A DNA stretch of 64,000 nt, taken from the NCBI RefSeq assembly GCF_008362905.1, contig NZ_VFJB01000005.1, positions 62,001 through 126,000 on the forward strand, in the 5' to 3' direction. The DNA is from Deferribacter autotrophicus (GTDB lineage: Bacteria; Chrysiogenota; Deferribacteres; Deferribacterales; Deferribacteraceae). Below, one piece after another: positions 4,836 to 27,103 of this stretch. The translations under genes and the position numbers were made by a program. Position 1 is the first letter of the stretch. The number at the start of each line of letters is the position of its first letter. The notes under the pieces were generated by a model, which searched no databases, was not told the origin of the DNA, and was given only the letters and a program-made list of their open reading frames with translations.

Positions 4836-4963
4836 AAATAGAGGAAATACATTTTTCTCAATCTCACAAAACATCCATTTTTGCTGTGAGGCAAATGCCT
4901 CTAAAACCGTCATCCGTGACGGTTTTATGGGCATTTGAACCCTAAAAATGTATTCCTCTATTT
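4836..4963. repeat. Structured intergenic repeat, copy A (three-stem fold)
   Basis: A long outer stem pairs 4836-4856 with 4944-4963 (one bulged A). It encloses a weak side hairpin around 4864-4890 and a strong hairpin: CAAATGCC (4892-4899) with GGCATTTG (4930-4937), then AAAACCGTCA (4903-4912) with TGACGGTTTT (4917-4926) closed by the loop TCCG. A second copy at 26937-27063 has the same plan with paired substitutions. A sequence like the right end of that copy's enclosing terminal repeat (GGGATGATTCCAG) follows at 4991-5003; no matching left end is clear. The rest of 4749-5110 holds no gene that I can support. Confidence 0.85.
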
Positions 4964-5110
4964 GTATGAATAGGGTTATTTGTAAAAATTGGGATGATTC
5001 CAGTTATAAAGAGGTTGTTTCTCGGCTACGGAAGGATCGCAATGACGCGTTTCTCTTATATTTATTGATTTAAAAGCTGAAGTAAATTCAGAGTGACAGG
5101 TTTGTTGAAA

Positions 5111-18315: not shown

Positions 18316-18611
18316 CTGGTGTCACCCCATTTTTATGGGGATTAGTGAGATAGGAAAGTAGGGAAATGGGGGGGAGTTCAATGTTCAAGGTTCAAAGTTC
18401 AACGTTCAAGGTTCAAAGTTCAACGTTCAACGTTCAAAGTTCAACGTTGGAACGTTTACATGTTAAGGCGTTAGAACGTTGGAACGTTAAAACTTAAAAC
18501 TTAAAACGATTTACCGATTCACTAGCTGTTCTTTATTGCTACAACTCCTACAACTTTTACTACCCCTACTACCTTACATTTCCTTATTTGCAAAAAATGG
18601 GGTGACACCAG
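18316..18611. mobile_element. MITE-like element with perfect 19-bp terminal inverted repeats
   Basis: CTGGTGTCACCCCATTTTT (18316-18334) is the exact reverse complement of 18593-18611. Between them lie a G-rich stretch, a heptamer tandem array and a pyrimidine-rich stretch. There is no open frame for a transposase. The left end also forms a CCCCAT-TTTT-ATGGGG hairpin (18325-18340), five bases after the stop codon region of the phosphatase gene, so it may serve as its terminator. I see no certain target-site duplication. The right end stops 10 bp before the candidate ilvD promoter. Confidence 0.8.
18377..18507. repeat. Tandem TTCAANG heptamers passing into AACGTT-type octamers
   Basis: From 18377 about ten uninterrupted units TTCAATG/TTCAAGG/TTCAAAG/TTCAACG occur, then longer units containing GGAACGTT and GTTAAAAC. 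The array lies inside the inverted-repeat element and may vary in copy number. Confidence 0.8.
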
Positions 18612-26727: not shown

Positions 26728-26867
26728 CTGATGTTACCCCATTTTGTGAAAGAAGGGTGAAATAGAGAAGTTGGGAAATGGGGAAGTAGAAAAAGGTTAA
26801 GGTTTACGGCTCAAAGTTAAGAGTTTAAAATAGGTTAAGGATAAGGTTAATGCTATATTATAAAAAT
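26728..26867. repeat. Degenerate relative of the 18.3-kb element
   Basis: It begins with CTGATGTTACCCCATTTT, a variant of the 19-bp terminal repeat, followed by a purine-rich stretch (AGTTGGGAAATGGGGAAGTAG) very similar to 18356-18372, then degenerate GGTTAAGG units. It has no inverted right end of its own; the next element begins immediately with a direct copy of the terminal repeat. Confidence 0.6.
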
Positions 26868-27103
26868 CTGGAGTCACCCCATTTTTTTGGAAATTGTTTT
26901 AAATTATATAGATGTATCAGAAAATTATATTGAAGTGTTTATGGAAAAACATTTTTCTCATTCTTGCAAAACGTCCAGTTTTGCTCCGAGGCAAGTTCCT
27001 CTAAAACCGCCATCCGTGGCGGTTTTATGGGAACTTGAACCCGAAAAATGTTTTTCCATAAACTCATAAATTTAAGACTTTGAAAAAAATGGGATGACGC
27101 CAG
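26868..27103. mobile_element. MITE-like element carrying structured repeat copy B
   Basis: The ends CTGGAGTCACCCCATTTTTTT (26868 onward, to 26888) and AAAAAAATGGGATGACGCCAG (27083-27103) are inverted repeats with two mismatches and belong to the same family as the ends of the 18316-18611 element. The interior holds the three-stem folded repeat and no gene. It lies between the leuA terminator and yebC. Confidence 0.75.
26937..27063. repeat. Structured intergenic repeat, copy B (three-stem fold)
   Basis: The outer stem is a perfect 20-bp pairing of 26937-26956 with 27044-27063. Inside are a side hairpin GCAAAAC/GTTTTGC (26966-26984, loop GTCCA) and a long hairpin built from CAAGTTCC (26992-26999) with GGAACTTG (27030-27037) and AAAACCGCCA (27003-27012) with TGGCGGTTTT (27017-27026), loop TCCG. 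Compared with copy A, base changes in the stems occur on both sides and keep pairing. Confidence 0.88.

What the first reader, a model, noticed from the sequence alone, without database searches (positions are those of the whole stretch)
26937..27063. Two intergenic copies of a roughly 127-bp three-stem element with compensatory changes
Copy B (26937-27063) and copy A (4836-4963) share a long outer stem, a side hairpin and a main hairpin with loop TCCG. The stem sequences differ, but pairing is kept: CCGTCA/TGACGG in A is CCGCCA/TGGCGG in B; CAAATGCC/GGCATTTG is CAAGTTCC/GGAACTTG; and the outer stem differs at several positions, with both arms matching. Loops and the strand between stems (for example ATTTTTCTCA and TCCG) are nearly unchanged. 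This pattern implies that the fold is selected or is copied as a hairpin. It could be a non-coding RNA, a regulatory structure, or a REP-like or IS200-type mobile hairpin; I do not recognise it as a known family.
Basis: partly seen in the sequence, partly recalled or inferred. Interest (0 to 1): 0.65.

Follow-up and report, generated by a model that had tools for sequence, protein, structure and literature searches.

The report
Mobile transposon relic with folded core
The two matching fold-back sequences are the inner part of a small "hitch-hiking" transposon present in 42 copies in the deep-sea bacterium Deferribacter autotrophicus; it belongs to a known kind of element, but its core has stayed nearly unchanged in front of one gene operon in two species and is itself the landing site of an apparently RNA-guided transposon.

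Summary
In detail: both copies exist at the stated coordinates, fold into an outer stem, a side hairpin and a main hairpin, and differ by matched changes in the stems. The 127-bp unit is the core of a ~236-bp non-autonomous transposon (MITE) with terminal inverted repeats CTGGNRTCACCCCATTTTT and 8-11-bp target duplications. Deferribacter autotrophicus has 42 copies, D. desulfuricans one, 44 other genomes of the order none. Intact IS4-like elements with the same ends occur in related genera but not in Deferribacter. Both window copies are missing from the D. desulfuricans sites. Across the family 34 matched double changes keep pairing (2.0 expected on the same tree), yet G-U intermediates are no more tolerated than A-C, so the covariation does not prove an RNA. 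Two results point to function: the core's + strand runs with the flanking genes (27 v 5), and the copy before etfB diverged 6.7% while etfB third codon positions diverged 42%. At least ten copies carry an IS110-type IS at one exact site that its guide-like segments match. REP/IS200, Rfam membership and a CsrA sponge were tested and rejected. New member of a known kind; RNA function plausible, unproven.

The parts
26868..27103 (+). Copy B, complete non-autonomous element (236 bp), core in + orientation
   Evidence: Terminal inverted repeats at both ends; absent from the orthologous leuA-yebC interval of D. desulfuricans. No clear target duplication at this copy.
26868..26886 (+). Left terminal inverted repeat CTGGAGTCACCCCATTTTT
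   Evidence: Exact match to the family repeat
27085..27103 (-). Right terminal inverted repeat (1 mismatch)
26937..26957 (+). Outer stem, 5' arm
   Evidence: Pairs with 27043-27063; helix 1, 91.9% of cells paired over 23 copies, 16 of 21 pairs with both-side changes
26958..26962 (+). Junction segment TCATT; homologous position is the IS110 insertion site in other copies (after ...TCAT, 26961)
   Evidence: Low substitution rate 0.8 per column; IS110 junctions
26963..26990 (+). Side hairpin (3 + 7 bp, 3-nt bulge, loop with TCC)
   Evidence: Helices 2 and 3
26992..27037 (+). Main hairpin (8 + 11 bp, conserved TC/TG internal mismatch, loop TCCG)
   Evidence: Helix 4; mismatch conserved in nearly all copies
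27038..27042 (+). Junction segment AACCC
   Evidence: Low substitution rate 0.8 per column
27043..27063 (+). Outer stem, 3' arm
4836..4963 (+). Copy A core (same fold, diverged stems)
   Evidence: CM hit G000:C5:66834-66966, 127.2 bits
4985..5003 (-). Copy A right terminal inverted repeat (2 mismatches); the left repeat is no longer recognisable
   Evidence: element absent from the D. desulfuricans hflC-trkA interval
18316..18611 (.). Third element in the window with the same terminal repeats (296 bp) but an unrelated interior
   Evidence: locus L041

Best explanation
The repeats are copies of a ~236-bp MITE, i.e. a transposase-less transposon moved in trans by an IS4-like DDE transposase. Shown: terminal inverted repeats, 8-11-bp target duplications, empty sites in the sister species, and an autonomous IS with the same ends in related genera. 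Inferred: the transposase that amplified it in D. autotrophicus is gone (probability of the MITE reading ~0.95). The 127-bp core is a three-way-junction fold carried by every mobile lineage of this family, whose stems change in matched pairs while junctions and inner stems stay. Most likely (inferred, ~0.5) it acts in cis once transcribed: inserted between co-directional genes with its + strand in the mRNA, it forms an intercistronic structure that is tolerated or that modulates mRNA stability or read-through, as proposed for ERIC and NEMIS. One old copy, before etfB, has been retained under constraint. Part of the stem covariation probably arises from arm-to-arm copying in the DNA palindrome rather than from RNA selection.
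For: 42 core copies in the genome, 1 in G001, 0 in 44 other genomes of the order. Terminal repeats and target duplications such as TAGTAGATAA, GTATCTAAAA, ACTCATTA, TAATTTTTG, ATATTTTCA, AAATCTTTACA. Same terminal repeats in 20 of 46 genomes, reversed-pattern control ~0. A 1467-bp IS with these ends, a 453-aa DDE_Tnp_1/IS4-like transposase, 8-9-bp target duplications and the shared subterminal motif TCAATAARTTAT in G002; relatives in G008 and G010 with ends spaced alike. Both window copies are absent from D. desulfuricans. Core pairwise identity 0.775 v spacers 0.64/0.67, shuffled baseline 0.585. Orientation: ++ 27, -- 5 (two-sided sign test about 1e-4, my arithmetic), and no copy inside a called gene. 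L024/L051: core 9/134 differences v 42% at etfB third codon positions, terminal repeats eroded in both.
Against: No transcript data. Single changes give no G-U preference (18 GT, 13 AC; null 36.7, 26.0), so RNA-level pairing selection is not shown. No autonomous copy in D. autotrophicus or D. desulfuricans, so current mobility is unproven. Copy B lacks a clear target duplication and copy A a left repeat. The orientation bias could reflect harm from the other strand rather than benefit from this one. The G001 conservation rests on a single locus.
Confidence: 0.8

Rival explanations
1. Compensatory changes come only from DNA: the palindrome is corrected by copying one arm from the other (template switching), and the fold has no function.
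For: G-U-type and A-C-type single changes equally depleted. On internal branches 21 double Watson-Crick changes but only 2 GT and 3 AC intermediates. Many double changes are transversions, which cannot pass through G-U. Copy L038 has both mismatch columns replaced to give a perfect hairpin. Mosaic copies L016, L022 and L035.
Against: The TC/TG mismatch survives in almost all copies; junctions and inner stems are conserved while spacers drift to near random; orientation bias; conservation of the etfB copy. None of these is predicted by copying alone.
Confidence: 0.35
2. The core is kept because it raises the element's own transposition (transposase or host-factor recognition of the cruciform), not for any RNA effect.
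For: All lineages of this family keep the core; strand-symmetric covariation. Mini-elements of the same end family in G002 and G010 also carry long, unrelated internal hairpins.
Against: Elements with other interiors or without the core exist and carry good ends (L041, L044, L046, L049, L050). Does not predict the orientation bias or the conserved etfB copy whose terminal repeats are gone.
Confidence: 0.25
3. The core is an independent small RNA read from the minus strand, related to Rfam TwoAYGGAY (two GGA hairpin loops, proposed to bind CsrA).
For: Minus-strand hits to RF01731 at 42.6 and 42.0 bits, E about 1e-5 in 261 nt; minus-strand main loop reads AYGGAY. CsrA link proposed for that family in PMC4333381.
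Against: Below the gathering score of 43; only 3 of 20 loci at E < 0.1; the second hairpin is not aligned to the model's second hairpin. CsrA is absent from D. autotrophicus and D. desulfuricans although found in G002 and G008. The minus strand is antisense to most flanking genes.
Confidence: 0.05
4. REP/REPIN or IS200/IS605-type hairpin moved by a Y1 (HUH) transposase.
For: Intergenic, palindromic, dispersed.
Against: No Y1_Tnp in the 99.9% complete genome; long terminal inverted repeats and 8-11-bp target duplications, which such elements do not make (own knowledge).
Confidence: 0.01

Closest known systems
ERIC/IRU (enterobacteria) and YPAL (Yersinia)
   Same: Intergenic palindromic MITEs of similar size (ERIC is 127 bp) with stable RNA folds, co-transcribed with flanking genes; in Yersinia the ERIC effect on the upstream mRNA depends on orientation (review PMC2229807)
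   Different: No sequence relation tested; ERIC ends are short with a TA terminal motif, here 19-bp ends with 8-11-bp duplications and an identified IS4-like partner
Correia/NEMIS (Neisseria)
   Same: MITE with terminal repeats, target duplications and a fold proposed to be cut by RNase III in mRNAs (PMC2229807)
   Different: 24-bp ends with TA motif; a different element size and interior as described there
bcr1 (Bacillus cereus group)
   Same: Dispersed structured mobile repeat limited to one group of species, tens of copies per genome
   Different: bcr mobility is linked to a TTTAT motif and a site-specific-recombination-like process (PMC6542083), not to DDE terminal repeats
IS4-superfamily insertion sequence of G002 (1467 bp)
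   Same: Same terminal repeats, subterminal motif TCAATAARTTAT and target duplication length
   Different: Carries a transposase; lacks the structured core
IS621/IS110 elements that insert in REP palindromes (PMC11208160, PMC1525189)
   Same: An IS110-type IS sits at one exact position in palindromic repeats, with guide-like segments matching it
   Different: The target is a MITE core, not a REP; this describes the guest IS, not the element itself
TwoAYGGAY RNA (RF01731)
   Same: Outer stem enclosing hairpins with GGA loops on the minus strand
   Different: Below gathering score, second hairpin not matched, no CsrA in the host

Membership tests
MITE (non-autonomous TIR transposon) | Terminal inverted repeats | tested here: met
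   CTGGNRTCACCCCATTTTT, 117 sites at up to 3 mismatches v 3 in control
MITE (non-autonomous TIR transposon) | Target site duplication of a narrow size range | tested here: met
   8-11 bp at most intact copies; not seen at copy B
MITE (non-autonomous TIR transposon) | No transposase gene, and a cognate autonomous element | tested here: met
   No coding interior; IS with the same ends in G002, with related transposases in G008 and G010; none in the own genome
MITE (non-autonomous TIR transposon) | Empty orthologous sites | tested here: met
   Both window copies absent in D. desulfuricans
REP/IS200 mobile hairpin | Y1 HUH transposase in the genome | tested here: not met
   PF01797: 0 matches
TwoAYGGAY RNA RF01731 | Score above the Rfam gathering threshold | tested here: not met
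   42.6 v 43 at best
TwoAYGGAY RNA RF01731 | Two hairpins with AYGGAY loops | tested here: inconclusive
   Main loop fits on the minus strand; the side loop is mostly CYGGAY and not aligned to the model's second hairpin
CsrA-binding RNA | Host encodes CsrA | tested here: not met
   PF02599 absent in G000 and G001, present in G002 and G008
Structured RNA under selection | Covariation above phylogeny | tested here: met
   34 v 2.0 double changes in total; but only 2 of 50 single pairs reach E<0.05
Structured RNA under selection | Wobble pairs tolerated on one strand | tested here: not met
   GT and AC single changes equally depleted against the null
Structured RNA under selection | Transcribed | not testable with these tools
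   No expression data held

The most novel reading that the evidence does not exclude
The core is a strand-specific cis-acting RNA that the transposon carries to survive inside operons, and one copy has been domesticated as a regulator between an upstream gene and etfBA in the genus Deferribacter.
Probability: 0.3. Interest if true: 0.6.

Novelty: new member of a known kind. Interest (0 to 1): 0.42.

Why it matters
It is a clear case where strong stem covariation in a repeat family does not by itself prove an RNA: a G-U-versus-A-C test on the tree finds no strand preference. The family also ties together three layers that can be tested: an IS4-like donor in sister genera, a folded MITE that lies in operons mostly in one orientation, and an IS110 element whose guide-like segments match the MITE core. 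The etfB copy offers a specific candidate for domestication of a MITE.

Tried and rejected
Rfam at gathering threshold: nothing in the window. TwoAYGGAY near-hit followed and dropped: below threshold, second hairpin unmatched, no CsrA. REP/IS200: no Y1 transposase. Own-genome DDE_Tnp_1 transposases as donors: their ends do not match. Homologues in plasmids, phages, viral contigs: none. A pattern scan of genome contigs found none, but own and near genomes may be left out there. A transposase search in genome contigs confirmed no relatives. Promoter/terminator scan of the copy B region: no sigma-70-type site and no terminator inside the core. Strand assignment from G-U wobbles: no signal in the family; the four stem changes between L024 and L051 split 3:1 for + strand wobbles, too few to use.

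Full report
WHERE IT IS. The window is contig C5:62001-126000 of a 2.54-Mb genome. One contig is 319,692 bp long, equal to the N50 published for Deferribacter autotrophicus SL50 (total 2,543,746 bp; PMC6896113), so I take the genome to be that species. The same-genus genome G001 has a contig of 2,234,389 bp, which I recall as the D. desulfuricans SSM1 chromosome. G002 (2,157,835 bp) I recall as Calditerrivibrio nitroreducens. The last two names rest on memory.

OBSERVATION. Copy B and copy A are as described and fold strongly on both strands. blastn with copy B finds about 40 places in the genome. A covariance model built from 23 cores finds 42 distinct copies in the own genome, one in D. desulfuricans and none in 44 other genomes of the order. 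The structure has 50 pairs in four helices: 94.2% of cells pair, 29 pairs change on both sides, and shuffled or slid partners do far worse.

THE REAL UNIT. The 127 bp are the core of a ~236-bp element bounded by CTGGNRTCACCCCATTTTT inverted repeats. Most intact copies are flanked by direct duplications of 8-11 bp. Copy B spans 26868-27103 and has no clear duplication. Copy A has a degenerate right end at 4985-5003 and no recognisable left end. Both are absent from the orthologous intervals of D. desulfuricans: leuA-yebC and hflC-trkA. Elements with the same ends but other interiors, or without the core, also occur (L041-L050).

THE PARTNER TRANSPOSON. The same ends occur in 20 of 46 genomes of the order, with the reversed-pattern control near zero. 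In G002 at least seven pairs of ends lie 1467 bp apart around a 453-aa transposase with a DDE_Tnp_1 domain, IS4-like by NCBIfam though below its cut-offs. Target duplications there are 8-9 bp, and the subterminal motif TCAATAARTTAT is shared with the MITE. Related copies with similar ends are in G008 and G010. Neither Deferribacter genome has one, and the own genome's DDE_Tnp_1 elements have other ends. So the MITE was mobilised in trans by an IS4-like transposase that is now missing; that last step is inference.

WHY PAIRING IS KEPT. On a tree of 23 cores, 34 matched double changes preserve Watson-Crick pairs; random placement of the same substitutions gives 2.0 +/- 1.4, maximum 7 in 1000. 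Single pairs seldom reach significance (2 of 50 at E < 0.05) because the lineages are few. If an RNA strand were under selection, changes leaving a G-U pair on that strand should be tolerated over A-C. They are not: GT 18 v null 36.7, AC 13 v null 26.0, and on internal branches 2 v 3 beside 21 double changes. This fits a strand-symmetric process, such as arm-to-arm copying in the DNA palindrome. Mosaic copies (L016, L022, L035) show that copies also recombine.

WHY IT STILL LOOKS FUNCTIONAL. The core is better conserved than the spacers between it and the ends: 0.775 v 0.64/0.67 mean pairwise identity, shuffled baseline 0.585. Junction segments change slowly (0.8 changes per column) while outer arms change fast (2.6). 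Of 41 copies with both neighbours called by simple ORF rules, none lies in a gene; in co-directional settings the core's + strand matches the genes in 27 and opposes them in 5. The sign-test p of about 1e-4 is my arithmetic on the pooled counts. The copy before etfB (L024) has an ortholog in D. desulfuricans (L051): the core differs at 9 of 134 positions, etfB third positions at 42%, and the outer repeats are eroded in both species. That is the strongest sign of constraint, though from one locus.

MECHANISM I COMMIT TO. A MITE, carried by an IS4-like transposase, whose core forms a three-way-junction structure in the mRNA when inserted between co-directional genes. It most likely acts as a tolerated or mildly regulatory intercistronic structure, comparable with ERIC in Yersinia, whose effect depends on orientation (PMC2229807). 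Mobility is well supported; the RNA step is inferred at about even odds.

NESTED IS110. At least ten copies carry an IS110-family IS at the same point, ACATTTTTCTCAT^TCTCGC. Its 5' non-coding region contains ACATTTTTCTCATT and GAGAATG: the first equals the left target strand, the second is the reverse complement of CATTCTC. This is the layout of left and right target guides described for IS621 (PMC11208160); I did not model the RNA fold. A second, related IS110 in L177 has nearly the same segments and sits at the same site. Insertion of IS110-type elements into palindromic repeats is known (PMC1525189).

KNOWN FAMILIES. No Rfam family passes threshold. TwoAYGGAY comes within 0.4 bits on the minus strand in one copy, but its second hairpin is not matched, most copies score low, and CsrA, its proposed partner, is absent from both Deferribacter genomes. 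REP/IS200 is excluded by the absence of a Y1 transposase and by the ends. The kind of element is known; this family was not found in the plasmid, phage or viral collections searched, and the passages I saw of the D. autotrophicus genome paper mention diverse IS elements, not this repeat.

Noticed in passing
L169:2068-3577; L170-L176 (G000 C9, C3, C1, C4, C8): IS110-family IS inserted at one exact site of the MITE core; its upstream non-coding region holds guide-like segments matching that site (ACATTTTTCTCATT and GAGAATG), as expected of a bridge RNA.
   Followed up: partly
L177 (G000:C2:67000-72500) and L031 (G000:C9 end): A second, related IS110 at the same site of other copies, with slightly changed guide-like segments.
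   Followed up: partly
L017, L019, L034, L035, L031: A ~101-bp insert with inverted ends TTCAGGGTGTNGCACA sits at the same position (GGGAACTT^GAACCC) of at least five copies, including one with a diverged interior; no mobilising element identified.
   Followed up: no
L024:1490-1623 and L051:1489-1622 (minus strand): Core copy before etfB conserved between D. autotrophicus and D. desulfuricans (6.7% different) although the surrounding transposon ends have eroded.
   Followed up: yes
window 18316-18611: Element with the same terminal repeats but an interior made of short GTTCAA-type repeats; similar interiors occur in G002 elements (L096, L098, L099).
   Followed up: partly
window 26728-26746: A lone end-like sequence CTGATGTTACCCCATTTTG just upstream of copy B, perhaps the remnant of another element.
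   Followed up: no
L131, L134, L137, L143 (G010): Another mini-element family of the order with CTGA[CA]GTCACCCCATTTTT ends and a long, unrelated branched hairpin inside.
   Followed up: partly
L042, L044, L045: Elements whose core is replaced or joined by another repeat family (CGTCATTGCGAGGAGCGAAGC... palindromes).
   Followed up: no
L034, L036, L037: Three copies share an aberrant 3' arm (GGCTCATTTTTGGG) that breaks the main stem, suggesting sequence exchange between copies.
   Followed up: no
L013:1694-1864: Cobalamin riboswitch (112 bits) directly downstream of one element copy.
   Followed up: no
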